Under the pieces are notes generated by a model that saw nothing but the letters and a program-made list of their open reading frames with translations, made no database searches and was not told the origin of the DNA. A stretch of 42,556 bases of DNA from Lachnospiraceae bacterium (GTDB lineage: Bacteria; Bacillota; Clostridia; Lachnospirales; Lachnospiraceae), in NCBI GenBank assembly GCA_016282915.1, contig JAEELW010000050.1, positions 1 through 42,556 on the forward strand, written 5' to 3'. This document shows positions 10,882-39,052 of the stretch, piece after piece (position 1 is the stretch's first letter; each line of letters opens with the position of its first letter). A program made the position numbers and the translations under genes.

Positions 10882-10945
10882 TTTATCGGAAAAGAGATAC
10901 CATTCGTCGGAAAAAGGACTTATACATCAGCGCTGGGCGTATACT
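10882..10945 (+). promoter_or_regulatory. Paired 21-bp-spaced activator-like repeats and -10 box upstream of the large CAP gene
   Basis: TTTATCGGAAAA at 10882 and TTCGTCGGAAAA at 10903 are direct repeats exactly 21 bp apart. After the second octamer there are 29 bp to TATACT at 10940-10945. No TTGACA-like -35 box lies at the right distance. The same arrangement occurs at 33251-33314, 38989-39052 and, on the minus strand, 21252-21314. ACCATTCGT (10899-10907) is one mismatch from the LytTR consensus WMMGTTNRK. This leaves a 5' leader of about 130 nt. Confidence 0.65.
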
Positions 10946-11080
10946 GAAGCTGATAGATGAGAAAAACGGCTTATGCTGAGTTTTCCGGCTGCGTGCTGCC
11001 GGGATAAGCCGGCAGGCATATGGACGGTCCCGGGCGCCGGGAAACAGGAGTGCTGCCGCAGGGCAGAGAAGGAGGCATAT

Positions 11081-14000
11081 ATGAAAAACAGGAGATTCCG
11101 TGCTGTCGCAGGTATACTGCTGACAATGCTTTTGCTGCTTCAGAGCTTCATACTTCCGGTAAAGGCCGGAGATAATGATACGGAAGAAGCCGTACCGGAG
11201 CCTCAGGCAGCCGGCGATAACGGCAGCCGCAGCCGTGGTTACAGCGGCTACAATGCGAAAAGACCCTATTCGTTCCTGATCCCGCTTTCGGGAGGATATA
11301 TGCGTGTGCAGGCCGGAGACTTTGAAGGCGGCTTTGATGTCATGTATTATGACAGCACTTTTCAGCAGACCGGGCGTATGCATATTGCCGAAGAGCTCCC
11401 CGTATTCGGCGGCTTTTATGCGGCCTCCGACGGAAGATATTATGTCGTGACCGGCCGGAACAACAGCGCCGAACAGGATATCGAGGTGATCCGCATCACC
11501 GCCTACGATCAGGGCTGGAACCGTATCGCTTCGACCGGGCTTTACGGAGCCAATACGGAAACGCCTTTCCGTGCCGGCTCTCTGGATATGACGGATTCGG
11601 ACGGTTATCTTCTGGTCCGGACCTGCCACCGCATGTTCAAAACGCCGGACGACGGGCTGAACCATCAGGCAAACTTATCGATCCAGATGAATATGAATAC
11701 CATGCAGATCACTTCGGAGCGCTCGGATATCGCGAACGAGTATTGCGGCTATGTGAGTCATTCCTTTAACCAGTATATCCGCGCCGAGAACGGCTATGCC
11801 TATGCGGTGGACCACGGAGATGCCTACCCGAGAGGGATCATCCTCGGCAGATATACGGATCCGGTTTCCGGCGGCGCGTGTGTGGAGTCTTATTTTGATC
11901 ATGTGGTGATGCACGAGTTTCCGGGTGCCATCGGCGATAATTATACCGGTGCGGAGCTGGGCGCTTTTGAGATCTCGTCCTCTTCGTTCCTGATGGCGAT
12001 GTCGTCCAATATCGATATATATGATTACCGTAATTCGTCCGCAGCGAGAAATATCGTTGTGCTGAGCGTGCCGAAATCGGGAACGGGCTTCGGTACAGCT
12101 GTGGAAAAAACGATCACCTCCTATACAACGGAACGGCCTTCCCAGCCGTATCTGGTGAAGGTCTCGGGGGAGCGCTTCCTGCTCCTCTGGCAGTGCGGCG
12201 GAAATGTATACTATACAGAGCTGGATGCGGAAGGAAATCCCGGCCGGATCTACGGATATGAGGGTAAATTATCGGACTGTCAGCCGGTCGTGGCCGGGGA
12301 CAGGGTCGTATGGTATTGTGCAGAGGTGCTTTTTTCAGACACTCCGGAGAAAAGATATTTTTACACCATCAATCTGAACGATCTCTCGGACTTTACGGTA
12401 TTTGAGGATCCGGGATCCACACCGACACCGACGGAGGAGCCCGCGGAACCGACACCTACGGAAGAGCCTACGCCCACGGAGGACCCGACGCCCACGGAGG
12501 ACCCGACGCCCACGGAAGAGCCTACGCCTGCGGAGGACCCGACGCCGACAGAAGACCCCACGCCGTCGCCGGAGCCCGGGGGAGATGCCGGGAGTATGGT
12601 GGTCCGGGAGGATATCTATTATGAAGTGATGCAGAGGATCCTTGAGCTGATCAACGAGTGGCGCGTGGAAAACGGGATCGAAGGAGAATACCGTCTGAGC
12701 GAGGGACTGACTAAGATCGGGATCGACCGGGCCACAGAGATCTATCTGATGAACAGATGCCGGCCCAACGGCGAAGACGATTTTGATGCGGAAGGCATTT
12801 CCGTTTGCGGCCAGGCCTTCCGCAGCACCTCACAGGCTTATGATGAAACCACTTACCGGACCGAGTATGACAGCGATGCCCTTGCCCGCGACTGGTTTGA
12901 AGCGAGTGTGAAGAGATGTGTCGAGACCAATCTGCGGAGTTCCTGCTGCGGCGATGCCAGGGATGTGGGGATCGCCGTGGTAAATCATCCCGGCCTGGGG
13001 ATGCATTACTTCTTCTATATCGGTTATGATGAAGCGGGAGATGTGAATATAAGGGAAGATGCACTGAATAAGGAATGCCGTATCGATTTTAAGAGCGACT
13101 ATATCCGTTTTGATACGCTTGTGCCGGAAACACTGGAAAAAGGCAAGAGTGACAAAGTCCGTATCCTTGCGCACAGTACGGATGAAGAGGACTGGATACG
13201 GCTTGAAGCCCGGATCGACGGGATGAGCTATTCCTCCGACCGGGAGGATGTTCTGACGGTATCCGACACGGGCGTGCTGAAGGCGCTGAAGGCAGGCAGC
13301 GCGGTGGTCACGGTCACGGCACCGGGCTACGGTACGAGGACATTTACGGTCACGGTTCCGGGAAGTGAAGAACCGGGAGAGCCGACACCGACACCGTCGC
13401 CGTCTCCTTCTCCCACACCGCCCGGGCCGGAAGAAGAGATCGAAGTGGTAAATGCAGGCAGCGTAACGCTGGCCGTAAAGCAGCGGACCGATATCGCGCC
13501 GGATGTGCAGGCAGCGGTCACCGCCGCTTATGAAGGAAAGCTGAAATATGTCTCCGCGGATAAACGGATCGCGACCGTGACCTCAAAAGGCGTGGTAAAA
13601 GGAAAAGCTGCCGGTATGACCTTTATCAGCGTATACGGGATGCATTACGGCAGGATGACAAAGCTTGCGGAATATACGGTGGGCGTTACGAAGCCGGTGC
13701 TGAAGTTCACAAAGGATCTGACTTATGAATATGCAGCGCTGGATCCGAACGACTATATCACGGGCCTGCCTGAGGGACAGCCCTTTGAATGGTCCATACC
13801 GGCCAAGAGCAAAACGGCATGGCTTTCCGGCGACGGCAGTCAGATCCTGGCATTGAAGAACGGAAGCGTGAAGGTAAGCTGTACCATCGGCAGCGGAAAG
13901 TACGCGGCCAAATATACGGCGGCGCTGAAGGTAAAGATCCCGAAGACCCCGAAATGCGTAAAGCTGAAAGAGGGAAGTTACAAAACCGTGACCCTGAAAA

Positions 14001-14173
14001 ACGTCAGTTCCTTTACCCATGTGGAATGGAGCTGTAATGAGGAAGAAGGGATACTGATCACGGAGATACCGAAAAACAACAAAGTAAGGATCTACGGTTT
14101 TTATCCCGGGGAAACGACGCTCACGGCTACTGTGGACGGGAGGGAATATGTGATCCCCGTGGAGATACGATGA
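11081..14173 (+). CDS. Secreted protein: propeller-like domain, Pro/Thr linker, CAP domain, Big2 Ig-like domains
   Basis: 1030 residues from ATG 11081, chosen over upstream in-frame starts because AAGGAGG lies at 11069-11075 and a clean signal peptide follows (MKNRRFRAVAGILLTMLLLL, cut near VKA). Residues about 45-430 look like repeated beta-sheet blades (propeller-like, not firmly assigned). Then come a PTPTEEP/PTPTEDP linker (446-500), a CAP/SCP-like domain (about 507-656, with LINEWRVENG and RPNG), a Big2-like domain (about 686-757), a PTPSPSP linker and further Ig-like domains to the end. The CAP residues usual in GEN and GHR positions are replaced (CGQ, VKR), and Cys residues are added, including CC. 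No sortase motif or SLH domain is present, so release or non-covalent wall attachment is likely. The last 530 residues are paralogous to the 19450-21210 protein. Confidence 0.85.
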   Translation: MKNRRFRAVAGILLTMLLLLQSFILPVKAGDNDTEEAVPEPQAAGDNGSRSRGYSGYNAKRPYSFLIPLSGGYMRVQAGDFEGGFDVMYYDSTFQQTGRMHIAEELPVFGGFYAASDGRYYVVTGRNNSAEQDIEVIRITAYDQGWNRIASTGLYGANTETPFRAGSLDMTDSDGYLLVRTCHRMFKTPDDGLNHQANLSIQMNMNTMQITSERSDIANEYCGYVSHSFNQYIRAENGYAYAVDHGDAYPRGIILGRYTDPVSGGACVESYFDHVVMHEFPGAIGDNYTGAELGAFEISSSSFLMAMSSNIDIYDYRNSSAARNIVVLSVPKSGTGFGTAVEKTITSYTTERPSQPYLVKVSGERFLLLWQCGGNVYYTELDAEGNPGRIYGYEGKLSDCQPVVAGDRVVWYCAEVLFSDTPEKRYFYTINLNDLSDFTVFEDPGSTPTPTEEPAEPTPTEEPTPTEDPTPTEDPTPTEEPTPAEDPTPTEDPTPSPEPGGDAGSMVVREDIYYEVMQRILELINEWRVENGIEGEYRLSEGLTKIGIDRATEIYLMNRCRPNGEDDFDAEGISVCGQAFRSTSQAYDETTYRTEYDSDALARDWFEASVKRCVETNLRSSCCGDARDVGIAVVNHPGLGMHYFFYIGYDEAGDVNIREDALNKECRIDFKSDYIRFDTLVPETLEKGKSDKVRILAHSTDEEDWIRLEARIDGMSYSSDREDVLTVSDTGVLKALKAGSAVVTVTAPGYGTRTFTVTVPGSEEPGEPTPTPSPSPSPTPPGPEEEIEVVNAGSVTLAVKQRTDIAPDVQAAVTAAYEGKLKYVSADKRIATVTSKGVVKGKAAGMTFISVYGMHYGRMTKLAEYTVGVTKPVLKFTKDLTYEYAALDPNDYITGLPEGQPFEWSIPAKSKTAWLSGDGSQILALKNGSVKVSCTIGSGKYAAKYTAALKVKIPKTPKCVKLKEGSYKTVTLKNVSSFTHVEWSCNEEEGILITEIPKNNKVRIYGFYPGETTLTATVDGREYVIPVEIR
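12418..12580 (+). repeat. Low-complexity PT(P/E)-rich linker repeat
   Basis: Repeats of an 18-bp unit around ccgacgcccacggaggac encode PTPTEDP/PTPTEEP. They form a stiff acidic Pro/Thr linker between the propeller-like and CAP domains. A shorter PTPSPSP linker of the same kind is at 13378-13430. Such linkers are often O-glycosylated; that is not shown here. Confidence 0.85.
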
Positions 14174-14190
14174 GCCGCAGCTGAGCTGCA

Positions 14191-14230
14191 GCCGGGAGTT
14201 TTCCCGAAAGCGTTCAGGAAAGCTCCCGGT
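14191..14230. terminator. Hairpin at the convergent 3' ends of the CAP gene and the flavin reductase gene
   Basis: cgggagttttcc (14193-14204) pairs with ggaaagctcccg (14217-14228), one wobble, extending by one or two pairs, with a 12-nt loop. It sits 18 bp after the CAP gene stop and covers the last codons of the minus-strand reductase gene. There is no good T run on either side, so it may act as a stabilising or weak bidirectional terminator hairpin. Confidence 0.45.
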
Positions 14231-15299
14231 CCGCGTTACGCTTCATCTCTGCCGGGCACTTGTGCGGCATGCCGGGACCATACTGGCAGCGGGGACAGTT
14301 AAAGCATTTTACGTAAGGCCTGTCTTCGAGTACCGCTTCACAGAAAGCGGGATCCGCCAGCAGTGCCCGGGCCAGATCCACGGTGTCCGTCAGTTCGTTT
14401 TCGATCAGATAGCGGGCAAGAGAAACATCCAGGATCCCGTTTACACAGGATACCGGTACGCGGCCTTTGAAATGTTCATGGAAACGTACGCCAAGGGAAC
14501 AGAAGCGGTTGTAGGGCTCCCCGTTTTCCGTAACGGAAGGATCTTCCCATTCGATCCCGGTGGATACCTGAAGATAATCGCAGCCGGCTTTCACGTATTC
14601 TTCCGCGATGGCGCAGGCAGTGGCTACATCCGGCTCGATCCCGGCGGTCCTGACCGAGATGAGGAAGGCGTCTCCGCATTCCTTACGGATCCTGCGGATC
14701 AGTTCAGCCGCAAAGCGCGCCCGATTTTCCGTGCTGCCGCCGTATTCATCCGTTCGGTGGTTTGTTTTCAGAGAGATGAACTGGTTGATCAGATAACCGT
14801 GGCAGCCATGGAGCTGTATTCCGTCGTAGCCGGCTTTTTTTGCGCGGACCGCAGCATCCAGAAAATGCTGCTGCATCTCATGGATCTCCTCCACGCTCAT
14901 TTCCTTTGACAGAACGGAAGGATCTCTTGTGGGGACGGCGGACGGGCCGATCGAGGGTCCGCAGTCCGGATTGGCGGTGATGCCGGTATGATTCAGCTGC
15001 AGGATCACCGCAGCCTCATGCTCATGGCAGGCCTGCGTGAGCGCCTTATGGCCGTTGATCTGCGCATCTTCCCATAAGCCGAGATGGTTCTTTGCAAATC
15101 TTCCGCCGGGCGTGACTGCCGTGGCTTCCACGCAGATCAGTCCGCAGCCGTGCGCCGCACGTTCACGGTAATGAGCGATATGTTTTTCCGTTACTTTTCC
15201 GTCTTCGCCGGCAAGATCAAACTTGACGGTCGGCGCCATGGTGAGACGGTTTTTGATCACGGTTCTGTTGATCGTGATCGGATCATTTACCTGTACCAT
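14214..15299 (-). CDS. OYE-family NADH:flavin oxidoreductase with C-terminal Fe-S cysteines
   Basis: 361 residues, a single TIM-barrel domain of the old yellow enzyme family. It opens with INRTVIKNRLTMAP and contains the FMN and substrate-site stretch IQLHGCHGYLINQFISLKTN followed by RTDEYGGSTENRARF. The C-terminus has CFNCPRCQYG and, 12 residues after the third Cys, a fourth Cys (HKCP), resembling the [4Fe-4S] site of the FMN/Fe-S branch (2,4-dienoyl-CoA reductase, BaiCD-like). That branch usually continues into an FAD/NAD domain of about 300 residues, which is absent here. It probably reduces an activated C=C bond in the cytosol; the substrate is unknown. It lies 18 bp after the cupin gene and is co-transcribed with it. 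Confidence 0.9.
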   Translation of the reverse strand: MVQVNDPITINRTVIKNRLTMAPTVKFDLAGEDGKVTEKHIAHYRERAAHGCGLICVEATAVTPGGRFAKNHLGLWEDAQINGHKALTQACHEHEAAVILQLNHTGITANPDCGPSIGPSAVPTRDPSVLSKEMSVEEIHEMQQHFLDAAVRAKKAGYDGIQLHGCHGYLINQFISLKTNHRTDEYGGSTENRARFAAELIRRIRKECGDAFLISVRTAGIEPDVATACAIAEEYVKAGCDYLQVSTGIEWEDPSVTENGEPYNRFCSLGVRFHEHFKGRVPVSCVNGILDVSLARYLIENELTDTVDLARALLADPAFCEAVLEDRPYVKCFNCPRCQYGPGMPHKCPAEMKRNADRELS

Positions 15300-15317
15300 A
15301 AATTTCCCTCTGTAAAT

Positions 15318-15668
15318 TCATGCATATACGATCACGGCGACCAGTTCCACGAGCTCATCCGTTTTGTTTTCGATGCCGTGTCCGCTTCCGGCCGGACAGA
15401 TGGTCACATCGCCGGCAGATACGGTGCGGAGCTCTCCGTTATCGTTGTATTCAGCGCTTCCCTGAAGGATATAGAAGAGTTCACTGTCTTTTTCATGCAC
15501 ATGATATCCGATGCTGCAGCCGGGTTTCAGGCTGATCTTTGAAAACAGGCGTCCCTTGTCACAGAGCTCCTGAGGGCCTTCGATAAAGTTTGTGATCTCT
15601 ACGGTCCCTTTTCCGTCGCGCATATGCTCCCTGTACTCGATCTTGCATTCTTCTTTTTTTCTGATCAT
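15318..15668 (-). CDS. Small cupin-domain protein
   Basis: 116 residues forming one cupin_2 barrel. Metal-binding motif 1 is GYHVHEKDSELFYILQG (two His, one Glu); motif 2 is seen as ICPAGSGHGIEN with its His. Such small cupins are isomerases, epimerases, dioxygenases or ligand-binding proteins; the sequence does not decide between them. It is the first gene of a two-gene operon with the OYE-type reductase, so it may act on the same substrate. A strong minus-strand promoter lies at 15724-15752, and AAAGGATCC before the ATG gives a moderate ribosome-binding site. Confidence 0.88.
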   Translation of the reverse strand: MIRKKEECKIEYREHMRDGKGTVEITNFIEGPQELCDKGRLFSKISLKPGCSIGYHVHEKDSELFYILQGSAEYNDNGELRTVSAGDVTICPAGSGHGIENKTDELVELVAVIVYA

Positions 15669-15723
15669 GATACGGATCCTTTCTTTTTATGCCGAAAAGC
15701 GGCTGACGACTGCATTCGTAACA

Positions 15724-15752
15724 ATTATGTGCTATAATATTACGAGTGTCAA
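15724..15752 (-). promoter_or_regulatory. Sigma-A promoter of the cupin-reductase operon
   Basis: On the minus strand TTGACA (complement of 15747-15752), a 17-bp spacer and CATAAT (complement of 15724-15729). That is six of six and five of six matches with ideal spacing. Transcription should start near 15717, about 50 nt before the cupin ATG. Confidence 0.8.
15730..15738 (+). promoter_or_regulatory. Extended -10 element facing the zinc-ribbon SH3 gene
   Basis: TGCTATAAT on the plus strand, a perfect TATAAT with the TGn extension but no -35 match at 15710-15715. It lies inside the spacer of the minus-strand promoter, so the two could not be occupied together. The leader to ATG 15908 would be about 165 nt. 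Confidence 0.4.
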
Positions 15753-15907
15753 GGACAGACCGCAGCGTTCAATGATCCGGGTGGTTCTGCGGAGGAAGGA
15801 TTTTGCCGCGCTTGTAAATCTCACGGTTTTCGGGTAAGATAGAGCCGCGTGAACAGAATTCCCGGCTGCCCGCGTATAAATATATGGATCCTGTTTGGAG
15901 GAATAAG

Positions 15908-17053
15908 ATGACCTGCAGAAAATGCGGAACGGAACTGAAGGATTATGAGCAGATCTGCTATAAATGCGGAACGCCGGTTTCCGGACGTGAAGGAGCAAGG
16001 AAGATCAGAAAGAAGCTGCCGGCGTGGCCGTTTATGATCGCGGGAGGAGTGCTGCTTCTGCTGGCGGTCGTGATCCTCTTTGGCTTTATACTGAGGGGTT
16101 CGGACGAAGAAGATAGTGAAGCGCTGGCGGAGCCGACGGAGAAAGCCGTACCCACGGCAGAGGCAAAAGCAACGGAGGCATCGAAGCCCACGCCTTCAAA
16201 AAAGCCCGAAGAGGAAGAAACGGATCTGCTGGAGGTGTATACACCGATCCTGGAGAGAGAGGATATACGCGATCCGAAATACGACCTGGCCTATATCAAT
16301 GACGATGATATCCCGGAACTGATCGAGATCGCTTATGATATGGATAACATGGGACCGGCCCAGTTTGAGCTTTTCAATATCTATACGGTCCGCGACGGAG
16401 AAGCGGTAAAGATCGACCACGGACATACCTACGGGGGATATTTTGAACGGAAGGATTTTGTCAAGGCGGGGCAGGAGGATCAGTTTCTGCTGGCATATTT
16501 TAAGAGTGTTTTTGAAGAAGGAACATCCCTGCTGTGGACCGAGTATGACTGGGAGGCATCCCGGCGCGGCGCTCCGGAAGAGGAGTGCTTCCCGGAGGGA
16601 GGAGTGTGTTACCGGTCCGACAACGGAGTGGAGAAACGGATCAGCAATGCGGAATACGAGGCGGAGCTTGCGAAATACGGCAGTATGATCCGGAGGAGAG
16701 ACCTGAGCAGAGCCGGAGTGGAAGGCATCCTTTCGGGTCTGAAGGACGGCGGCAGCATATGGCCGGAGGGAGAAGGCGAAATGGAGGCAACGCCCACGCC
16801 GATCCCGACACCGTCACCCACGCCGGTACCGGAAGATGCAGCCGAAGAGCCTGTCCTCTATACCGTGGAGGTAACGGCGGAGGATGATCATGTGAATTTC
16901 CGCGAGGGACCGGGAACGGATTATCCCATCATCGAGCCGATCCCCAACGGCACGCATCTGTCCATACTTGAGGATAGGGAAACCTGGCTGAGGATCAGCT
17001 ATAACGGAAGGAGCGGCTGGGTCGCCACCACGCAGGTGACAAAGCTGCAGTAG
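15908..17053 (+). CDS. Zinc-ribbon membrane protein with C-terminal SH3b domain
   Basis: 381 residues from ATG 15908, chosen because GGAGG lies 6 nt upstream and the protein then begins MTCRKCG like its relatives in this window. The zinc ribbon (CRKC, CYKC) is followed by one membrane span (about 44-66), an acidic linker, and an outer domain of about 170 residues beginning near VYTPILERED, with LAYINDDDIPELIEI, reminiscent of DxDGDGxPEL-type domains of Clostridia. Then come a PTPIPTPSPTP linker and a bacterial SH3 domain (VNFREGPGTDYPIIEPIPNG, ending SGWVATTQV). SH3b domains usually bind peptidoglycan. The predicted layout is zinc ribbon inside and wall-binding domain outside. A good terminator follows at 17137. 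Confidence 0.85.
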   Translation: MTCRKCGTELKDYEQICYKCGTPVSGREGARKIRKKLPAWPFMIAGGVLLLLAVVILFGFILRGSDEEDSEALAEPTEKAVPTAEAKATEASKPTPSKKPEEEETDLLEVYTPILEREDIRDPKYDLAYINDDDIPELIEIAYDMDNMGPAQFELFNIYTVRDGEAVKIDHGHTYGGYFERKDFVKAGQEDQFLLAYFKSVFEEGTSLLWTEYDWEASRRGAPEEECFPEGGVCYRSDNGVEKRISNAEYEAELAKYGSMIRRRDLSRAGVEGILSGLKDGGSIWPEGEGEMEATPTPIPTPSPTPVPEDAAEEPVLYTVEVTAEDDHVNFREGPGTDYPIIEPIPNGTHLSILEDRETWLRISYNGRSGWVATTQVTKLQ

Positions 17054-17136
17054 AAGGCTGCCGTATAATGAAAAAGAGCTGCTGAGCTCACCGGACGGGA
17101 TCGTATTCACCCCGGGCATAAGCGTAAAATCTATCG

Positions 17137-17165: not shown

Positions 17166-17252
17166 GTGTTATGTTATTGGTAGTACTTTTATATTGTTTG
17201 TCACGGCTTGAAGAACTCAGACAGGATGATTTTACGGAATGGGGTGATCTTT

Positions 17253-19449: not shown

Positions 19450-21210
19450 TTATTTTACCGTCACCGGAATGAGGTATTCCTGTCCGTCCACAACTGCCCG
19501 GAGTATGGTATCTCCGGCGCAGACGGAATGGAGCCGTACTTTATTATTCTTCGGCTGCTCTGTGATCAGGACGCATGTGTTCTCATCGACGCTCCACTGC
19601 ACATCGGTATAGGGACTGACGTTATTCAGGGTGACGGTTTTGTATTTTCCTTCTTTCATCTTTACGGCATTCGGCGTTTTGGGGATGCGGACCTTCAGTG
19701 TGGCGCTGCAGGAAGCGGCATTTTTCCCCTCACCGATGATACAGCTGACCTTGATGCTTCCGTTTTTCAGGGCAGTGATCGTCCCGCTGTCATCGGAAAG
19801 ATAAGCCGCTTTGGCGGAGGAGGGGATGGACCAGCGGATGGGCTGACCCTCCGGAAGCCCCGTGATGAAGGCATTCAGATCCAGGGTATCGTGTACATAG
19901 TTCAGATCCTCGGTAAATTTCAGGACCGGTTTTGTTACCAGCAGGGAGTAGGTGGCAAGCAGTACGGATCTCCCGGAGAAGTCTCCGTATATCTTTATCG
20001 TTGCCGATCCGGCCTTTTTTCCTTTTACCAGACCTTTGGCACTGACACCGGCGACCTGTTTGTTATCGGAAACATAACGGAGTACGCCGCGGTAGTTTTC
20101 GCTGACGGCTGCGGCAGCTGCTCCGGAAATATCCAGTTTCTGTTTTACGGCGATCGCTGCAGTTCCTGCATCCACAGCCTCGATCTCCACCTCCGGAGCA
20201 GGAGGCAAGGGATCGGCATTACCGGGTACCGTGACGGTAAATTCTTTTGTTCCGTAACCGGGAGCGGAGACCGTGATCACAGCGGTACCGGCCTTCAGTG
20301 CTTTCAGACGGCCCGTATCCGATACCGACACGACAGCCTCGTTATCGGAAGAAAAAGTGATCCCGTCGATCTGTGCTTCCAGCTTTTTATCCTTGATCTC
20401 CCAGCTTCGGTCATTGATACTGAGCGCGAGGATCCGTATATCAGCGGTTTTTCCTTTTTTCAGGGTATCGGGAACGATCGTCTCGAAACGGATGAGATTG
20501 CTGTAAAAATCGATCCGGCGTTCGGTATACTCGGCTTTTTTGGGTATGACCAGTTCATCGGCATGGTCAACACCGATGTAGAAGAAGCAGACAAAACCGT
20601 TATCGCGGTGTCTTACACAGCCCAGGCCGATGTCACGGTTTACATAGGTACAGCCGCAATCCAGCGACTGTTCGAGAAGACGCCTGATCTTCTCGTCGAA
20701 CCACGCTTTTGCGATGGCATCACAGTCGTAATCATCAACGAGTTTACCTCCCCAGAATTCGGCCCAGGTGCAGGCCGCCTGGACATTTAATGCGGTGACG
20801 CTCTCGGGGAAAAAGTCATTTGTTCCGTTAGGACGGGTACCCCCGTTCATCAGATAGAGCTCGCTTGCACGGCCGATCGCTCCCTCACTCAGGCCTTCGG
20901 ACAGACGGAATTCCTCTCCTTTTTCCCGGCTCCATTCCCGGATCAGCTCGTATATCTTACTCATCAGATCATACAGGATATCTTCCCGGATCGTCAGGCT
21001 TCCTTTCTCACCGTTCCCTTCTTCCTCTTCCGGTGAAGATATCGGAAATTCTTCCCCGGGATCAAAGAACATTACGGAATCCTCTGTATAGACTGGATCC
21101 GTTTCATCCGCTTCGTTGTCTCCGGCATCTGCTCTTAAAAAGAAGCCTCCGAAAGCCAGGATCATTGTGAAAAGCATGGCTGCAAACATTTCCGTTTTTC
21201 TGATCTTCAT
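19450..21210 (-). CDS. Secreted CAP/Big2 protein, paralogue of the 11081 gene product
   Basis: 586 residues from ATG 21210; AGGAGG on the minus strand ends 5 nt before it, whereas an in-frame GTG 6 nt upstream overlaps the ribosome-binding site. A signal peptide (MKIRKTEMFAAMLFTMILAF) leads into a short acidic stretch, a CAP-like domain (about 75-230, with YELIREWSREKG and TRPNG), then Big2/Ig-like domains sharing phrases with the larger protein, for example LKALKAGTAVITVSAPGYGT, YSLLVTKPVLKFTEDLNY and ITGLPEGQPIRWSIP. It lacks the propeller-like part and the Pro/Thr linker. The usual CAP His/Glu positions are lost and at least five cysteines lie in the domain. It is probably a surface or secreted binding protein. 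Its promoter region resembles that of the paralogue. Confidence 0.85.
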   Translation of the reverse strand: MKIRKTEMFAAMLFTMILAFGGFFLRADAGDNEADETDPVYTEDSVMFFDPGEEFPISSPEEEEGNGEKGSLTIREDILYDLMSKIYELIREWSREKGEEFRLSEGLSEGAIGRASELYLMNGGTRPNGTNDFFPESVTALNVQAACTWAEFWGGKLVDDYDCDAIAKAWFDEKIRRLLEQSLDCGCTYVNRDIGLGCVRHRDNGFVCFFYIGVDHADELVIPKKAEYTERRIDFYSNLIRFETIVPDTLKKGKTADIRILALSINDRSWEIKDKKLEAQIDGITFSSDNEAVVSVSDTGRLKALKAGTAVITVSAPGYGTKEFTVTVPGNADPLPPAPEVEIEAVDAGTAAIAVKQKLDISGAAAAAVSENYRGVLRYVSDNKQVAGVSAKGLVKGKKAGSATIKIYGDFSGRSVLLATYSLLVTKPVLKFTEDLNYVHDTLDLNAFITGLPEGQPIRWSIPSSAKAAYLSDDSGTITALKNGSIKVSCIIGEGKNAASCSATLKVRIPKTPNAVKMKEGKYKTVTLNNVSPYTDVQWSVDENTCVLITEQPKNNKVRLHSVCAGDTILRAVVDGQEYLIPVTVK

Positions 21211-21251: not shown

Positions 21252-21314
21252 ATCATATCACCCCTGTCTTTTTTCAGGATGTTTTCCGATAAAATGCAGC
21301 TTTGTACTGACGGA
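21252..21314 (-). promoter_or_regulatory. Paired 21-bp-spaced repeats and -10 box upstream of the second CAP gene
   Basis: On the minus strand TCCGTCAG (complement of 21307-21314) and TTTATCGG (complement of 21286-21293) are 21 bp apart, followed by 28 bp and TATGAT (complement of 21252-21257). It is the weakest of four similar sites, with one base less spacing, but shares TTTATCGGAAAA exactly with the paralogue's site. The -10 box lies about 42 nt from the ATG. Confidence 0.5.
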
Positions 21315-33166: not shown

Positions 33167-33185
33167 ATCTCTGCACTTCATCAGG

Positions 33186-33242
33186 GCAAGACGGGGAACG
33201 GTTCTTCCGCTGGACAGGGGGAGGAACCGTTCCCCGTCTTGT
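33186..33242. terminator. Long perfect hairpin after the phosphorelay operon
   Basis: An 18-bp perfect inverted repeat (33187-33204 with 33224-33241, arms around gacggggaacggttc), extended inward by four more pairs to a 22-bp stem with an 11-nt loop. It lies 20 bp after the kinase stop and can end transcription, but only a short T-containing tail follows. Its length and symmetry also fit a dispersed palindromic (REP-like) element. Confidence 0.6.
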
Positions 33243-33250
33243 TCCTGCAT

Positions 33251-33314
33251 TTCGTCATGGAAAAAGTACCGTTTGTCAGAACATGAGAGATCCGGCCTGC
33301 GTTTGCGTTATGAT
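33251..33314 (+). promoter_or_regulatory. Paired 21-bp-spaced repeats and -10 box upstream of the transglutaminase-like gene
   Basis: TTCGTCAT (33251-33258) and TTTGTCAG (33272-33279) are 21 bp apart; 29 bp later comes TATGAT (33309-33314). The second repeat lies in ACCGTTTGT (33268-33276), a full match to the LytTR consensus WMMGTTNRK. There is no -35 box at the standard position. The -10 lies about 56 nt before the ATG. Confidence 0.65.
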
Positions 33315-33370
33315 GGACACAGTTGAGGAGCCCGGGATACGGGAGCAGCCCAGAATAAAGGAGAAATGCC

Positions 33371-35644
33371 ATGAAGAAGAGAAAACTGATGCCCATGATG
33401 CTTACAGTGATCCTGAGCGTTGGCAGTATCGCGCCGGAATATGCGCTGGCAGCGCCGGCGGAAGCCGAAGCAGAGCTCAGCGGGGAAGAGGATAAAGAAA
33501 AGGATCCTGTTTCCGGACCGGAGGCGGAGGAAGAAGGATCGGTTTCGGAAGAGGATGCGGAAGAAGAGAGCGCAGAGGATGCCGACTCCGTATCAGATAA
33601 AGAGGAAGAGGCGGAGGAAGCTCCGTTATCCGGGGAGGAGACAGAGGATGAGGAAGCTGCAGTCTCCGTGAATGAAGCAGATGCCGGGAGCACGGAAACC
33701 GCCGGTGAAGAGAGCGGGATCGATTACACGGACGCAGAAAGCGTCCGTTACGGTACCTCTGCCACCCCTGTAGACGGTGTGGTCTATCTGCCGGTGGAGA
33801 CGATCTCCGCCCTGAATGAAGAAGAGCTGGAAGCTTATACGGCATTTTGTGATGAAGCGGAAGTGCTGAAGAGCGAGATCCCCGAAATGGGAGAGATCGT
33901 CATCTATACGGACGAATACGGAAAGGTCAGTGCATATTACGATGTACCGCAGGAAGCTTTTGATGCCCTCCGCGGAGCTGCGTTTGACGGGAATATCCTG
34001 TCTGCTCCGGAAGATGTTGATGAATCGGTGATCGTTGATGAGGATCAGGATTTCTTTGAGGAGCCGGACGGGGCTGCCTGTGACCCGGATGTACCGGCTG
34101 CCGTAAACATGGATCAGGTCGAGATCCCTGAAGCTGAGGATCTGGATATTTCCGATTATGAAGAACTGGATATGTATGACGAGCTTATGGAGGAATACAG
34201 CGAGCTCATCGAAGCCGGCAATCTTTTTTCTTCATCTGCCACAACACGTTTCTACGACCAGCTGAATTCTTCTGCCCGGAAATGGTTCAATAAAGCATAT
34301 GAGAACATGATCAAAAAGAAGAGGAATTACTATATCTGGACTTCCAACTCCGGCAGTATTTATTCGACGGATCATCTCAATGCGATCTCCGCACTGGAAG
34401 ATACCTATCCCACAAAGCTTGGATGGAAGAACCCCGCAGGCGGTGTCCGTTTCTACTCTTCTTACAGCTGGCGGAGCGGCTACACACACAGGCTGGTACT
34501 GATCAAATCAAAGCATTACGGAAGCGGGCTCAACAACAGGGCAAATAAAAAAGTAAAGCAGCTTGTTACGGAAGCATACGAATACGCATCGCTTTACTAC
34601 CCCCAGGCACCCACCTATGGCATCGTAGAATATTTTGACAAGTGGATCTGTGAGAACAATTACTATAACTATGATGGAGTAGCGTCCGACAGCCGGAGCA
34701 GAGCCTCCGCGACCTACTATTACTGCCACAGGCAGTACGGGATCCTACTGAAGGGATATGGCGTCTGTGAGAGCTATGCACTTGCGATGAGCTGCCTGCT
34801 GGAAAAGGCCGGAGTGCCCTATATTTACATCGTCGGTGATACCCCCGGCGGCGGACATGCCTGGAACTATGTGATGATGCCCGATGGCAGATGGTATATG
34901 CTGGACAGTACCTGGGACGATGCAGGCGCCTATTCGGATCACGATTATTTCCTGGTCCCGGATGATTCCAGACACACGCCTACCGGACAGTTTTTCCGGG
35001 CCGGAAGCAATTTTTCCTACCCTTCAACATCAGACGGAAGATACTATTACAGCAGGGAAAGTTTTTCGCTCCCGACCGTAGCATTACGGAAAGGAAAGAA
35101 AACGGTCATCAAACCTAACGGAACTTATGAGAATATGATCACAACGGGCTGGCACAGCAGTAACTCCGCTGTGGTGAAGGTAGACGCTTCCGGAAAGATC
35201 AAGGGAAAGAAGGCAGGAAGTGCCATAGTCAGCTGCAGGATCAACGGGATCTATGCGGAAAGCCGGGTCGTGGTATATGAGCTTTCGAAGCTGAGCTTTG
35301 ACAGAAACGGCAGACAGAAGCTGGTCGACAGTTTTGTCACCTCCTCCGGGACCAACAGCTTTGTCATCAATGTCGGGCAGAAAGGCAGGACCGTCAGTGC
35401 GGAAGAGCTTTATTACACCGGCTGCGTCGATGCGCCGAAGGTAAGCTGCAGTAAGAAGAATATCGTGAGCGTGGGCTGGCAGCTCAGCGGAGATCAGCTG
35501 ATCCTGCGTGTAAGTGCCATGAGAGCGGGAAAAACGAAGGTCAAGGTGAAATTCGGCGGAAAGACGGCGGTACTGCAGCTGAACGTGAAAGAGTCGGGGA
35601 TCTATTCCTACGACGCGGCGGAAGCGGCAAGCGAAGCCTTCTGA
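33371..35644 (+). CDS. Secreted transglutaminase-like protein with acidic N-terminus and Big2-type domain
   Basis: 757 residues. A signal peptide (MKKRKLMPMMLTVILSVGSI, cleaved near YALA-A) is followed by a Glu/Asp-rich region to about residue 110 with VSGPE, LSGEE and VSVNEA motifs, a spacer of about 170 residues, then a transglutaminase-like domain (about 400-540). C466 (GYGVCESYA), H496 (GGGHAWNYV) and D512 (LDSTWDD) form the expected Cys-His-Asp triad. After it lies a Big2-like module (VKVDASGKIKGKKAGSAIVS) and another beta-domain. Secreted relatives crosslink or cleave peptides at the cell surface; the reaction is not determined by sequence. AAAGGAG precedes the ATG. It is monocistronic or shares a transcript with the small zinc-ribbon gene 68 bp downstream. 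Confidence 0.88.
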   Translation: MKKRKLMPMMLTVILSVGSIAPEYALAAPAEAEAELSGEEDKEKDPVSGPEAEEEGSVSEEDAEEESAEDADSVSDKEEEAEEAPLSGEETEDEEAAVSVNEADAGSTETAGEESGIDYTDAESVRYGTSATPVDGVVYLPVETISALNEEELEAYTAFCDEAEVLKSEIPEMGEIVIYTDEYGKVSAYYDVPQEAFDALRGAAFDGNILSAPEDVDESVIVDEDQDFFEEPDGAACDPDVPAAVNMDQVEIPEAEDLDISDYEELDMYDELMEEYSELIEAGNLFSSSATTRFYDQLNSSARKWFNKAYENMIKKKRNYYIWTSNSGSIYSTDHLNAISALEDTYPTKLGWKNPAGGVRFYSSYSWRSGYTHRLVLIKSKHYGSGLNNRANKKVKQLVTEAYEYASLYYPQAPTYGIVEYFDKWICENNYYNYDGVASDSRSRASATYYYCHRQYGILLKGYGVCESYALAMSCLLEKAGVPYIYIVGDTPGGGHAWNYVMMPDGRWYMLDSTWDDAGAYSDHDYFLVPDDSRHTPTGQFFRAGSNFSYPSTSDGRYYYSRESFSLPTVALRKGKKTVIKPNGTYENMITTGWHSSNSAVVKVDASGKIKGKKAGSAIVSCRINGIYAESRVVVYELSKLSFDRNGRQKLVDSFVTSSGTNSFVINVGQKGRTVSAEELYYTGCVDAPKVSCSKKNIVSVGWQLSGDQLILRVSAMRAGKTKVKVKFGGKTAVLQLNVKESGIYSYDAAEAASEAF

Positions 35645-35712
35645 AACGCTGATTAGAGTAAATAATCATTAAGAAGATCGATCAAATGTGATCAGAAAGA
35701 GAGAAAAAAACT

Positions 35713-36066
35713 ATGTTTTGTATGAAATGTGGAAATGAATTACCGGACAATGCGGGTTTTTGCAACAAGTGCGGAACTCAGCTGGGACAGATGCAGCAGA
35801 TGGGAGCGATGCAGCAGCTTTATGCACCTGCCCAGAAAAAGAAAACTGCTTCGCTGACAGTATCTGCGATCGTTCACGTGATCCTGGCCATCCCGTTCCT
35901 TATACTGGGATTCTGGCTGCGAAATAAGGGAGGCTACAATTACACCTGGAGACCGCCTTACAGCAGTTATGAAATACTCACACTCGGCATACTGGCGATC
36001 GGAGGCATTGCAATGCTGATCGCCATTGTCCTTGCGATCGTCGTCACAGTCAGGAAGAACTCCTGA
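35713..36066 (+). CDS. Small zinc-ribbon protein with two membrane spans
   Basis: 117 residues. It begins MFCMKCGNELPDNAGFCNKC, a four-Cys zinc ribbon, then a Gln/Met-rich linker (QMQQMGAMQQ) and two hydrophobic helices (about 50-68 and 92-112) with a Tyr/Trp-rich loop between. There is no enzyme domain. This zinc_ribbon_2-like N-terminus is shared with several other genes in the window. Function unknown; the ribbon probably lies in the cytosol. A weak GAAAGAGAG precedes the ATG and a strong terminator follows. Confidence 0.85.
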   Translation: MFCMKCGNELPDNAGFCNKCGTQLGQMQQMGAMQQLYAPAQKKKTASLTVSAIVHVILAIPFLILGFWLRNKGGYNYTWRPPYSSYEILTLGILAIGGIAMLIAIVLAIVVTVRKNS

Positions 36067-36112
36067 GAGTATAACGGGTTATGGTAAACCTGTGTTTTAG
36101 TAAAAGTATTGT

Positions 36113-36148
36113 CAGCCGTGCGTTTGTCAGAAATGCGCGGCTGATTTT
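36113..36148 (+). terminator. Rho-independent terminator
   Basis: cagccgtgcgtt (36113-36124) pairs with aatgcgcggctg (36132-36143) over 12 bp with two wobbles and a 7-nt loop, then ATTTTAT. It closes the small zinc-ribbon gene. Confidence 0.78.
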
Positions 36149-36163
36149 ATGTTAACAAAAAGA

Positions 36164-36192
36164 TTGAGTTTTTGCAATCTCTGTGATAGTAT
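36164..36192 (+). promoter_or_regulatory. Probable sigma-A promoter of the large TPR membrane protein gene
   Basis: TTGAGT (36164-36169), a 17-bp spacer and TAGTAT (36187-36192), four of six matches each at ideal spacing, directly after the terminator. A TTGACA at 36216 lacks a good partner. Confidence 0.5.
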
Positions 36193-36295
36193 CTTATTTG
36201 GATATTTCTGTTATTTTGACACAATATCTATGTCGGTCAGTGTATTGAGGAACCGAAGTGGGAAGAACACGGGGACGGAGGTTTCAAAAATAATC

Positions 36296-38851
36296 ATGAG
36301 AAAGAAAAAGACAGAGCCTGTTGAAGTGCAGGAAAAGCAGGAAACTTCTGGGACAGAGAGCGGGACGGAGCAGGAACCTGCCTCCGAAAAGGAATTGGCG
36401 ACAGCGGAAGCTGCCGATACAAAAGCCAAAAAGAAGAAGAGAAGATCTGTTTTTTTACATAAAGAGCTGGAAGAGCCGGAAACTGTGGAGAAGGTAACGA
36501 ACCAGCTTCCTGCAGCCGTGGAGAGTGTGAAATCGTCCGAGGCAGAGCAGAGCGCCGCAGCAGTATCTTTGGAAACCGCAGAGGAGCCTGCGGAGGAACA
36601 GGGAGAGGAAGCGTCGGCAGAGCAGCCCGCGGAAGTGTCTGTGGCGGAGCAGGAGCCGGAAACATCTGCGCCGGAACAGCTCCCGGAAGTCCCCGTAACA
36701 GAGCAGAGCACAGAGACGGAAACAATCGAAAAGGCAGCAGAGCGGACGGCAGCAGCTTCTGAAAATGCGGAAGTTCCTGCCTCAGAGCAGAAAACAGAGC
36801 AGGCCATTTCGGAAACAGCAAAGGAAGCGCCTGCTGCAGTAACGGAAACGTCTGCTCCGGAGCAAAGCGGCGCAGCGGTCATCAGGGAGCTTGAAAAGAA
36901 AGCAGAAGAAGAGCCTCCTGCCGCAGCGGAGGAAGCGCAGCTTCCCATCGTATCGCAGAAGGCAGAAGAAGCGGAGCCGAGCACCGGTCTTTCGCTTCTG
37001 AAGGAAAGCGGGGCACAGGAGATGCAGACAACGCCCGAGCCGTCGGAGCAGCAGGCAGTGGAAAGCCCTGCAGCGGAAAACGTGATACCGTTTCAGAGAA
37101 CAGAGCCGGAGATCTCCCGGCCGGCAGAAGACCCCGTGGTCGTACAGATGATGGCAGCACCGGTAAAAAAGAAGAAGAAAAGAAGAGTGGGCAGATTTAT
37201 TGCCGTGTTGTTCCTGCTGGCGAGCATCGGAGCCGGCGTTTATGTGGGATATCTCTATTATACGGATCCCACCCGCCGTGCGCTGGAGCAGCTGGGACAG
37301 GGAAATATCGAGACTGCGATGTACTATCTGGACAGGATCGGGCCGGAATGCGTGGAAGGACAGAAGCGTTTCACGGATGCGGCAGTGAGATATGCGCGGC
37401 AGACCTATAACCGATATCAGGCGGCAACCCTGAATTATTCGGAAGCCAGCTGGGCCGTCAAAAAGCTTCATGAGGGGATACTCTCGAAAAACGCCGAGCT
37501 GGGCGAGATCCTGGAAATGGTGGACAGTCTGGAGCAGTCCAGGATCGCATATGAAAATGCAGGGCACCTGAAAGATGCCGGGAAATATGAAGAGGCAGCG
37601 CTGGAATACGGAAAAGTGATAAAAGAAGACAGCGCATACGAAGCCTCACAGCAGGCGATCCTTGACTGCAGGGATCTTTGCCGCGAGGAAGTGCTGAACC
37701 GCACAAAGATCTACGAAGATGCCGGTATGTACGCAGAAGCGATCGCGGTGCTGGATGATGCACTGCAGATCCTTTCCGATGACAGACTGATCGTGGAAAG
37801 ATCGCTCTGCAGAGACAGGCTGAACGAAGAAAAAGGAGAGGCCGTCATTGACGAGGCGGAGGAGATGCTCGGTGACGGGAAAGATCCCGTGGCTTATAAA
37901 ACAGCGCTGGAGCATCTGGACGCTTATCTTAAGGATAATCCCGATGATGCGCAGGTAAAAAAGAAACGGAAAGTTTATGACAAAGCATATTATAAGGGGA
38001 TGATCCGGGCAGCAGAGGATGCGGCGAAAGATAAGGATTATGATACGGCGATCGGCGTATTGGACAGTCTTGCAAAAGATTATCCGGAGAATGAAGAGAT
38101 CGACGGCCTGATCGGATATTATACTTCCAAAAAGCCGGTACGGCTGGTAGATCTGGAGGTCTTCGAACAGCTCGGAAGAGGTGCCGGAACCGTATATTTC
38201 AACGAGAGCACGGAGGATACGTTCCAGAACCGCTACAGTGACGCCATCGGCGTAAGGGAACTGTACTCTTCGGAACTGGATTCGTTCAAGAACTATAAGA
38301 GTATAGGCTATATCGTTAATTCCAATTACGATCATTTCCATTGCGTGCTGGCCTATGAAAAGACCGCAAATACGCAGGGGAAGGCGATCGTGGAATTCCT
38401 GCTGGATGACGAGGTGATCTATACCACGGATCCCATCAAGAAATCCACCGGACCGGTCAGCGTAGATCTGAATCTGAAAAAGGGTCAGCTGTTTACGATC
38501 CGTTTTGTGAACAATAAAAAAGAAGAGTGTGCCGATATCATCCTGGCTGAGGCGGAGTTTTCCAGAATGAATGAAGCCGATGTTTCGACGGAAGAGATCC
38601 TGCCGGTGGAACCCGACGAAGAGGAAGATGAAGCGGATGACGAGGATGATGGGGAAGAGGCTTTCGAAGAAGAGGGGCCCGGCAAAAAAGATGCGGAAGC
38701 CGACATAGAAGAGGAAGACAGCGGCAAAAAGGACGCGGATAACGGAAAAAAGGATGAGAATGCAGGCAAGAAGGATGCAGATAACGGCAAAAAGGATGCG
38801 GATAACGATAAAAAAGATGCAGACGCCGGTAAAAAAGATGCGGTAAAATGA
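36296..38851 (+). CDS. Single-span membrane protein: acidic N-terminus, TPR-like helices, NPCBM-like domain, KKDADN tail
   Basis: 851 residues from ATG 36296, where the basic start MRKKKTEP looks natural; GGAGG is 14 nt upstream, rather far, so a start further upstream remains possible. Residues to about 285 are low-complexity, rich in Glu, Ala and Pro (EQPAEVSVAEQE type). A basic stop-transfer (KKKKKRR) and one membrane span follow (about 300-320), then TPR-like helical repeats to about 615. A beta-sandwich of about 130 residues (LGRGAGTVYFNESTEDTFQN to ADIILAEAEF) resembles NPCBM-like carbohydrate-binding domains. The tail is acidic and then repeats GKKDADN. The long charged N-terminus would be cytosolic, the rest outside. 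No enzyme motif. The role may be structural, linking cytosol and envelope; this is inference. Confidence 0.75.
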   Translation: MRKKKTEPVEVQEKQETSGTESGTEQEPASEKELATAEAADTKAKKKKRRSVFLHKELEEPETVEKVTNQLPAAVESVKSSEAEQSAAAVSLETAEEPAEEQGEEASAEQPAEVSVAEQEPETSAPEQLPEVPVTEQSTETETIEKAAERTAAASENAEVPASEQKTEQAISETAKEAPAAVTETSAPEQSGAAVIRELEKKAEEEPPAAAEEAQLPIVSQKAEEAEPSTGLSLLKESGAQEMQTTPEPSEQQAVESPAAENVIPFQRTEPEISRPAEDPVVVQMMAAPVKKKKKRRVGRFIAVLFLLASIGAGVYVGYLYYTDPTRRALEQLGQGNIETAMYYLDRIGPECVEGQKRFTDAAVRYARQTYNRYQAATLNYSEASWAVKKLHEGILSKNAELGEILEMVDSLEQSRIAYENAGHLKDAGKYEEAALEYGKVIKEDSAYEASQQAILDCRDLCREEVLNRTKIYEDAGMYAEAIAVLDDALQILSDDRLIVERSLCRDRLNEEKGEAVIDEAEEMLGDGKDPVAYKTALEHLDAYLKDNPDDAQVKKKRKVYDKAYYKGMIRAAEDAAKDKDYDTAIGVLDSLAKDYPENEEIDGLIGYYTSKKPVRLVDLEVFEQLGRGAGTVYFNESTEDTFQNRYSDAIGVRELYSSELDSFKNYKSIGYIVNSNYDHFHCVLAYEKTANTQGKAIVEFLLDDEVIYTTDPIKKSTGPVSVDLNLKKGQLFTIRFVNNKKEECADIILAEAEFSRMNEADVSTEEILPVEPDEEEDEADDEDDGEEAFEEEGPGKKDAEADIEEEDSGKKDADNGKKDENAGKKDADNGKKDADNDKKDADAGKKDAVK
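38722..38845 (+). repeat. 21-bp in-frame repeat encoding GKKDADN
   Basis: Six imperfect units of about 21 bp (ggcaaaaaggatgcggataac type) encode GKKDADN, GKKDENA, GKKDADN, GKKDADN, DKKDADA and GKKDAVK at the protein's C-terminus. The charged, regular tail could bind anionic wall polymers or metal; its A runs make it prone to slippage. Confidence 0.85.
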
Positions 38852-38940
38852 AACCGTCTGTGTCAACAGTGACCGCCTGAAGCGCACAGGGCAGTATGTG
38901 GACCGGCCGAAACAAAAACAGAAGAGATGCTGACATGTAA

Positions 38941-38965
38941 AGCCCGGCAGTTTTTTTGCCGGGCT
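38941..38965. terminator. Hairpin, possible terminator
   Basis: agcccggca (38941-38949) pairs perfectly with tgccgggct (38957-38965) around a GTTTTTT loop. The stem is strong but no T run follows on the plus strand; it sits 90 bp after the TPR gene stop and just before the next promoter. Confidence 0.55.
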
Positions 38966-38988
38966 CATGTTATGCCCCGAAACAGCGC

Positions 38989-39052
38989 TTCGTCGCATCA
39001 TGTATACCGTTCGTCAGCAGAGGATGAAATCTGCCGGGGAATATGTTATGAT
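38989..39052 (+). promoter_or_regulatory. Paired 21-bp-spaced repeats and -10 box upstream of the triple zinc-ribbon gene
   Basis: TTCGTCGC (38989-38996) and TTCGTCAG (39010-39017) are 21 bp apart and share TTCGTC exactly; 29 bp later comes TATGAT (39047-39052). ACCGTTCGT (39006-39014) matches the LytTR consensus fully. The block TACCGTTyGTCAG, N29, TATGAT is the same as at 33267-33314. Confidence 0.65.

What the first reader, a model, noticed from the sequence alone, without database searches (positions are those of the whole stretch)
10882..39052. Four promoters share paired 21-bp-spaced repeats at fixed distance from the -10 box
Sites at 10882/10903 (-10 at 10940), 33251/33272 (-10 at 33309), 38989/39010 (-10 at 39047) and, on the minus strand, 21307/21286 (-10 at 21252) each have two TTCGTCrG-like octamers exactly 21 bp apart, then 29, 29, 29 and 28 bp to TATnnT, and no -35 box. 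A spacing of two helical turns with direct repeats is typical of LytTR regulators (AgrA, ComE), and ACCGTTTGT and ACCGTTCGT match WMMGTTNRK. The targets are two CAP/Big2 paralogues, a transglutaminase-like protein and a triple zinc-ribbon membrane protein, suggesting a cell-surface regulon. No LytTR gene is in the window.
Basis: partly seen in the sequence, partly recalled or inferred. Interest (0 to 1): 0.8.

Follow-up and report, generated by a model that had tools for sequence, protein, structure and literature searches.

The report
Operator repeats of a secretion-system regulon
Paired DNA repeats in front of several genes of a gut-type bacterium look like landing sites for a regulator protein that is encoded inside the cell's type VII secretion locus, so the secretion genes and a set of surface proteins are probably switched on together.

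Summary
The four paired repeats are real, at the stated coordinates and geometry, and far above chance. A fifth lies in the window at 8149. Profile searches of the 3.85 Mb draft genome single out nine promoters: five in this window, one each on contigs C43, C22, C117 and C161. The C43 site is the key. It stands before the WXG100 genes of a type VII secretion (T7SS) locus ordered essC, LytTR regulator, EspG-like gene, yukD, SITE, WXG100 genes. In 30 of 40 related loci a site of the same kind (spacing 20/21 bp, gap 28/29 bp in 26 of the 30) follows the LytTR gene. Among 60 genomes, the five with this regulator (own genome included) carry the motif near it; 3 of 55 without it have weak, incomplete matches. 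The regulator is most likely the T7SS-embedded LytTR protein, and the regulon is a secretion regulon that here also takes in surface proteins. Its receiver keeps the phospho-acceptor Asp, but the Thr/Ser and Lys positions are mostly replaced, and no histidine kinase was found among 20 neighbouring proteins. Binding, activation and signal are inferred. The nearest printed precedent found is TsiN, a predicted LytR-like regulator of T7SSi.

The parts
8149..8211 (+). Fifth operator-promoter: boxes 8149-8156 and 8170-8177, -10 TAAGAT 8206-8211 (TG-extended)
   Evidence: 78.6% identical to the C22 promoter over window 8143-8211
10882..10945 (+). Operator-promoter 1: boxes 10882-10889 and 10903-10910, -10 TATACT 10940-10945
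21252..21314 (-). Operator-promoter 4: boxes 21314-21307 and 21293-21286, -10 TATGAT 21257-21252 (TG-extended)
33251..33314 (+). Operator-promoter 2: boxes 33251-33258 and 33272-33279, -10 TATGAT 33309-33314; a terminator-like hairpin (33217-33235) stands just upstream
38989..39052 (+). Operator-promoter 3: boxes 38989-38996 and 39010-39017, -10 TATGAT 39047-39052 (TG-extended)
8541..10178 (+). First large gene downstream of site 8149: protein with Lip_C (lipase-like) domain, membrane helices by eye; has its own sigma-70-like promoter at 8481-8509, so its control by site 8149 is uncertain
11081..14173 (+).
19450..21210 (-). Paralogous secreted Big_2 protein, downstream of the minus-strand site (ATG at 21210)
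33371..35644 (+). Secreted transglutaminase-like protein; Big_2 match just under Pfam's cut-off
39159..40079 (+). Zinc-ribbon membrane protein downstream of site 38989
1742..6324 (+). Two Ser/Thr kinase genes and a PASTA protein; no operator was found before them. Kinase relatives lie in T7SS loci of other genomes (e.g. L091, L126). Link to this T7SS is inferred

Best explanation
The repeats are operators of the LytTR regulator encoded inside the genome's T7SS locus (contig C43, L014:9480-10199). A dimer of the regulator binds two direct repeats (core TTYRTCRG, LytTR-style ACCGTTYGT) on one face of the DNA, 21 bp apart. The nearer box ends 28 or 29 bp before the -10, just upstream of where a -35 element would be, and the regulator recruits RNA polymerase to promoters that lack a -35 box and often (5 of 9) have a TG before the -10. 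It thereby turns on the WXG100 operon of the T7SS and, in this species, eight further promoters: before two Big_2 secreted proteins, a transglutaminase-like protein, zinc-ribbon and TPR proteins, a lipoprotein operon, and a transcript ahead of a lipase-like gene. Shown: the sites, their geometry, conservation and genome-wide number, and the gene context; the regulator's fold is predicted. Inferred: binding, dimerisation, activation, and that all nine answer to this one regulator. Not known: the signal.
For: Own genome: of 12 stretches that cover all 13 LytTR genes only the C43 one held a site with 3 or fewer mismatches, before the WXG100 genes. Profile R1, from six sites, found C22, C117 and C161 without having been trained on them (8.5e-8, 2.0e-5, 9.2e-5). 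With R2 (28 sites) nine promoters have E <= 2.5e-6 and the next 1.8e-3 (the nine are in its training set). Co-occurrence in 60 genomes: own genome set aside, R1 hits (E <= 0.01) in 4 of 4 genomes with a full-length orthologue, each within 2.5 kb of it, against 3 of 55 without, at E 0.004-0.009 and incomplete (Fisher p 8e-5). essC is immediately upstream of the LytTR gene in 41 of 42 fetched loci and yukD was found downstream in 36. In 40 loci with room, a site scores >18 in 30 (antisense 3, Markov 1); with spacings 16-26 and gaps 22-35 allowed, spacing was 21 in 22 and 20 in 8, gap 28 or 29 in 26. In G027 further, individually weak sites (R2 E 5e-4 to 0.02) on the T7SS contig precede proteins that look WXG/LXG-like by eye and a TPR protein. 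Regulator model pLDDT 93; best full-length PDB match ComE, LytTR domain matches AgrA in complex with DNA.
Against: No binding or expression data. Twelve other LytTR genes share the genome, and similar repeats sit beside agr-like LytTR genes elsewhere, so cross-binding cannot be excluded. 10 of 40 related loci have no site above 18; at a threshold of 15 the counts are 35 of 40 but also 15 antisense and 3 Markov. The own-site profile found nothing above 16 in 10 of 42 loci, and in L098, L101, L102, L110, L123 and L124 only hits away from the WXG100 promoter. R1 and R2 genome searches scored only a capped part of the first-look candidates (81-82 per genome in the own genome). R2 at E <= 0.05 hits 29 of 60 genomes, mostly noise, and lost the G001 and G020 T7SS sites. 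Some G027 hits precede ordinary genes (C29:45547, a solute-binding lipoprotein 0.75 kb downstream). No site was seen upstream of the essC operon in this genome. The lipase-like gene has its own perfect sigma-70-like promoter.
Confidence: 0.8

Rival explanations
1. The sites are LytTR operators, but the window promoters are bound by another of the genome's LytTR proteins (for example an agr-like response regulator), and only the C43 site belongs to the T7SS regulator.
For: 13 LytTR genes in the genome; similar GTTCGTCC repeats beside agr-like LytTR/kinase pairs in G022 and G041.
Against: The motif goes with the T7SS orthologue, not with LytTR genes in general: 55 of 60 genomes have some match to the regulator protein, 8 have R1 hits at E <= 0.01. 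None of the other own LytTR stretches holds such a site with 3 or fewer mismatches. One profile finds the window sites and the C43 site.
Confidence: 0.13
2. The regulator is a repressor: the nine promoters are held off and released by a signal.
For: Sequence alone does not exclude it; AgrA is described as repressing one promoter where its site lies immediately downstream of the promoter (PMC4227749, passage).
Against: The sites lie upstream at a near-fixed distance from a -10 without a -35, the layout of LytTR activators; a repressor would not need a fixed gap.
Confidence: 0.05
3. Chance, or a dispersed repeat that happens to hold a promoter.
For: Two own sites (8149 and C22) are alike over the whole operator.
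Against: Markov controls, and sites in other species that share mainly the boxes and the -10 (alignment A3).
Confidence: 0.01

Closest known systems
TsiN of T7SSi (Garrett, Higginson and Palmer 2024, PMC11217815; outline, passages, Results parts 1-2 of 3 and Discussion read)
   Same: A predicted LytR-like transcriptional regulator encoded in a T7SS cluster whose ATPase has FHA domains and which also has a ubiquitin-like and an EspG-like protein; here EssC with FHA, LytTR, EspG-like (by fold, weak), YukD.
   Different: TsiN was reported only from Vallitalea, with no clear TsxA gene and, in the parts read, no operator and no regulon; here WXG100 genes follow directly, kinase and PPM-phosphatase genes lie nearby in many loci, and an operator follows the LytTR gene in 30 of 40 related loci. 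Whether TsiN is the orthologue was not tested.
LytTR regulatory systems (HdrRM/BrsRM; PMC6193735, passages seen)
   Same: Two 9-bp direct repeats mostly 12 bp apart (21-bp period) at a near-fixed distance from the promoter (mostly 10 bp before the -35).
   Different: Those systems pair the regulator with a membrane inhibitor protein and control their own operon; here the regulator has a receiver domain, its neighbours are EssC and an EspG-like protein, and the site is before the WXG100 genes. The repeat sequence differs.
AgrA (S. aureus) and ComE (S. pneumoniae)
   Same: Receiver plus LytTR architecture; ComE is the best full-length structural match, the AgrA LytTR domain matches closely; the FhRhHRS motif described for the family is largely kept (His 36 of 36, Ser 30 of 36).
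   Different: AgrA and ComE have cognate kinases in peptide quorum-sensing operons (recalled); here no kinase was found among 20 neighbouring proteins and the receiver pocket is altered.

Membership tests
LytTR-type operator | Two direct repeats with a 21-22 bp period | tested here: met
   21 bp in nine of nine own sites; 21 (22) or 20 (8) in the 30 related sites scoring >18 though 16-26 was allowed
   Box 2: 6-9 of 9, box 1: 6-7 of 9 in eight of nine own sites; 4.0% of window 9-mers reach 7 and 0.56% reach 8
LytTR-type operator | Fixed place just upstream of the promoter | tested here: met
   Gap 28/29 in nine of nine own sites and in 26 of 30 related sites
LytTR-type operator | Bound by a LytTR protein | not testable with these tools
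   Needs gel shift or ChIP
LytTR response regulator | LytTR DNA-binding domain | tested here: met
   Pfam PF04397, E 1.8e-24, over its cut-off; AgrA-DNA structures matched
LytTR response regulator | Canonical receiver pocket (acidic pair, acceptor Asp, Thr/Ser, Lys; recalled) | tested here: not met
   Acceptor Asp60 36 of 36, but the Thr/Ser position is Ala in 30 of 36, the Lys position Arg in 30 of 36 (Lys in 5), Asp8 in 22 of 36; the receiver fold itself is predicted
LytTR response regulator | Cognate histidine kinase gene beside it | tested here: not met
   None among 20 proteins of the 20-kb C43 stretch scanned by Pfam; the other 13 kb of C43 were not scanned; kinases elsewhere not excluded (two HisKA hybrid kinases lie in the window)
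T7SSb | EssC ATPase | tested here: met
   NCBIfam T7_EssCb_Firm 1067 bits, cut-off 778
T7SSb | EssA, EssB, EsaA in the cluster (recalled set) | tested here: not met
   No such Pfam family among the 20 C43 proteins scanned
T7SSi | FHA-bearing ATPase, ubiquitin-like protein, EspG-like protein, LytR-like regulator | tested here: met
   the EspG match is by predicted fold only, E 4e-3, TM 0.51
T7SSi | Groups with TsiC of Vallitalea in an ATPase tree | not tested
   No named Vallitalea sequence was fetched
LytTR regulatory system (LRS) | Membrane inhibitor gene next to the LytTR gene | tested here: not met
   Neighbours are EssC and an EspG-like protein; the regulator has a receiver domain

The most novel reading that the evidence does not exclude
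A T7SS of gut and rumen Clostridia carries its own built-in transcription switch: a LytTR protein with a degenerate receiver that works without a dedicated histidine kinase, reads the state of the secretion apparatus or its Ser/Thr kinase, phosphatase and FHA circuit, and drives both the WXG100/effector operons and a wider set of exported surface proteins from one fixed-geometry operator. The LytTR gene, lying between the ATPase and an EspG-like chaperone gene, would then be a core T7SS part.
Probability: 0.3. Interest if true: 0.8.

Novelty: new variant of a known kind. Interest (0 to 1): 0.62.

Why it matters
T7SS of Clostridia outside the T7SSb type are known, in what was found here, from genome surveys without an operator or a regulon. 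A conserved operator with strict geometry gives a sequence handle to look for effector and accessory genes away from the T7SS locus, as it did here for this window and three other contigs. It names a testable regulator and links surface proteins to a secretion system of gut bacteria.

Tried and rejected
C152:40627 (R1 E 2.8e-4, R2 3.7e-3) was dropped from the count: it lies past the end of one gene, and no + strand ORF over 64 aa begins for about 750 bp. C39:24384 (1.3e-3 and 1.8e-3) is borderline and not counted: by eye spacing 21 and gap 30 to TATAAT, with a TPR membrane protein downstream. C156 and C53 (R2 0.005 and 0.007) were left as noise.

Repeats for the other LytTR genes: a loose search for LytTR-like pairs in 12 loci gave nothing convincing.

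A second gene after the G029 site at C62:27608 looked EspG-like by eye; comparison did not bear it out (E 0.017 and 0.69 for single comparisons). The next gene has a metallopeptidase match below Pfam's cut-off.

Adjacency of this window to C43 was considered (kinase genes at the left end resemble those of T7SS loci) but is not shown: L091 has the kinases after phosphatases, without the radical-SAM gene that precedes them here, and the genome has other kinase homologues.

Order-wide search: 31 of 295 genomes, own included, at E <= 1e-25. Of 29 loci other than our own, essC is immediately upstream in 16, from five families (L208 has an EssC-like match downstream and was not counted). Sites there are weaker: score >14 in 9 of 16 EssC-linked and 2 of 13 others, but also in 16 of 145 Markov copies; >20 in 7 of 16 and 0 of 13, with Markov maxima above 20 in 2 of 29 loci; spacing 20/21 together with gap 28/29 in 6 of 16 and 3 of 13. 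So the operator is less clear outside the near relatives. One search scanned minus-strand loci in the wrong direction; one search corrects that. In one search one training row (C161) was one base out of register; one search used it corrected.

Rfam: no family in the window at gathering scores. Literature searches: LytTR with 'type VII secretion', 5 papers; two or more of LytTR, T7SS, WXG100, EssC, YukD, 166 papers of which 25 were listed, none of those 25 with LytTR; T7SS with Lachnospiraceae and regulator, 5; LytTR with direct repeats and promoter, 20; esxA, AgrA and others, 4; 'type VII secretion', LytR, response regulator, Clostridi, 5, of which PMC7064774 was opened at passages and links its LytR to epa genes; EspG with T7SSi, only PMC11217815. 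By titles and abstract starts none reports this operator. PMC6222199 was opened at passages and concerns an OmpR-type regulator. Most subscription papers and bioRxiv are not held.
Full report
What was checked. The four reported promoters are as described, with octamers 21 bp apart and gaps of 29, 29, 29 and 28 bp to the -10. A strict scan of 220,426 bases of this genome (the window plus 12 stretches round all 13 LytTR genes) found five sites with at most two mismatches; five Markov copies gave none with three or fewer. The fifth of these lies outside the window, on contig C43. A further window site at 8149 scored four mismatches there but fits the alignment of sites and resembles the C22 promoter up to the -10.

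Genome-wide. In the own genome it returned these six and, untrained on them, C22 (8.5e-8), C117 (2.0e-5), C161 (9.2e-5), C152 (2.8e-4) and C39 (1.3e-3); the next is 0.13. C22, C117 and C161 have two boxes 21 bp apart and a -10 at 28, 28 and 29 bp. A second profile from 28 sites (R2) separates nine promoters (E <= 2.5e-6) from the rest (>= 1.8e-3), though the nine are in its training set. Both searches scored 150 of the first-look candidates. Five of nine lie in this window, 1.1% of the genome (binomial 2e-8).

The regulator. The C43 site is between yukD and the WXG100 genes of a T7SS locus: VWA-FHA and FHA-like proteins, an EssC with FHA domain (NCBIfam T7_EssCb_Firm over its cut-off), a LytTR protein, a 191-aa protein, YukD, the SITE, a 133-aa ORF, five small WXG100-type genes (three over Pfam's cut-off), then genes with weaker M91 and WXG100 matches, two DUF4176 proteins and a PP2C phosphatase. 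The 191-aa protein is predicted (pLDDT 83) with a fold like the T7SS chaperone EspG3, as a weak match (E 4e-3, TM 0.51). The LytTR protein is predicted with high confidence (pLDDT 93) as receiver plus LytTR; best full-length PDB match ComE. In 36 aligned orthologues the acceptor Asp60 is invariant, but Ala stands at the Thr/Ser position in 30 and Arg at the Lys position in 30: an atypical receiver. No kinase gene was found among the 20 proteins scanned.

Conservation. Of 60 related genomes, five have a full-length orthologue (E < 1e-60; the next is 7e-15). R1 hits at E <= 0.01 occur in all five, within 2.5 kb of the orthologue in each, and in 3 of the other 55, weakly and incompletely (82 candidates scored per genome). 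Leaving out the own genome, 4 of 4 against 3 of 55, Fisher p 8e-5; at E <= 1e-3, 3 of 4 against 0 of 55. With R2 the picture is noisier: 29 of 60 genomes at E <= 0.05, the best without the orthologue being G041 (7e-5, 2e-4) and G022 (2.4e-4), two of these beside agr-like LytTR genes. A scan of the species-genome collection with the five orthologues gave 42 loci; titles, where they say so, are Lachnospiraceae, Blautia, Oscillospiraceae, Clostridiales or Clostridia, and one Sphingobacteriales (L132, no essC). essC is directly upstream in 41 of 42, yukD follows in 36. Searching 2.1 kb downstream of the LytTR gene in the 40 loci with enough sequence, with free spacing (16-26) and gap (22-35), 30 score above 18 (antisense 3, Markov 1), with spacing 21 (22) or 20 (8) and gap 28 (15), 29 (11) or other (4). 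At a threshold of 15 it is 35, against 15 antisense and 3 Markov. Some of the 30 are doubtful, for example L101 (gap 25), and ten loci had none above 18. The operator is thus tied to the T7SS regulator over a wide range; farther out in the order it fades.

What is regulated. In this genome: the WXG100 operon; two Big_2 secreted proteins, a transglutaminase-like protein and a zinc-ribbon membrane protein (window sites); on C22 a 356-aa protein with zinc-ribbon matches below Pfam's cut-offs, after a small ORF; on C117 a lipoprotein (by eye) with Big_2-paralogue-like sequence farther downstream; on C161 a zinc-ribbon TPR protein; and at 8149 a transcript of unclear use. In G027, weak sites (R2 E 5e-4 to 0.02) on the T7SS contig stand before a TPR protein and three proteins that look WXG/LXG-like by eye but have no Pfam hit; one on C13 (2.2e-4) precedes a secreted protein, and one at C29:45547 a solute-binding lipoprotein. 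In G029 one precedes a 209-aa protein and one with a weak metallopeptidase match. So effectors are possible targets in relatives, while in the window three of the five targets have Sec-type signal sequences by eye and two look like membrane proteins.

Mechanism. Boxes with a 21-bp period face one side of the helix; the near box ends 28/29 bp before the -10, which leaves 5-6 bp to where a -35 would start; the -35 is no better than random and five of nine own sites have TG before the -10. This is the layout of LytTR activators: published LytTR systems have 9-bp repeats mostly 12 bp apart and mostly 10 bp before the -35 (PMC6193735, passages). The best reading is activation by the C43 LytTR protein. 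The signal is unknown. Ser/Thr kinase, phosphatase and FHA genes of these loci, and kinase genes in this window whose relatives sit in T7SS loci (L091, L126), make a phosphorylation input attractive, but nothing here shows it.

Comparison. A survey (PMC11217815; Results parts 1 and 2 of 3 and Discussion read) names eight further T7SS types; one, T7SSi, reported only from Vallitalea, has a predicted LytR-like regulator, TsiN, with an FHA-bearing ATPase, a ubiquitin-like and an EspG-like protein. The present loci share these parts. Operator and regulon were not met in the titles and abstract starts returned.

Noticed in passing
window 8206-8540: Downstream of site 8149 there is no clear ORF up to 8400; a terminator-like hairpin at 8370-8394 and a perfect TTGACA-17-TATAAT at 8481-8509 come before the lipase-like gene, so the site may drive a short RNA or leader.
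   Followed up: partly
L176 (G022:C205) and L174 (G041:C187): agr-like loci (LytTR regulator plus kinase-like membrane protein; an AgrB-like protein by eye in L174) carry GTTCGTCC-type repeats about 21 bp apart, hinting at one operator style for LytTR regulators in these bacteria.
   Followed up: partly
window 1742-6324: Zinc-ribbon Ser/Thr kinase, second kinase and PASTA protein in a row; kinase pairs lie near phosphatases in T7SS loci L091 and L126.
   Followed up: partly
L014:18434-19962: Protein at the end of contig C43 with tandem repeats (YAGPEIP.IGNIVTPPPV) that run off the contig, a possible reason for the assembly break.
   Followed up: no
L077 (G013:C77:28659): Very regular pair ACCGTTCGTCG with 21-bp period in a genome without the T7SS regulator orthologue; its gene is not worked out.
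   Followed up: no
L103, L106, L108 (and L099, L105, L107, L118): Seven loci use a 20-bp instead of a 21-bp period with scores above 18; L101 does too but is doubtful.
   Followed up: partly
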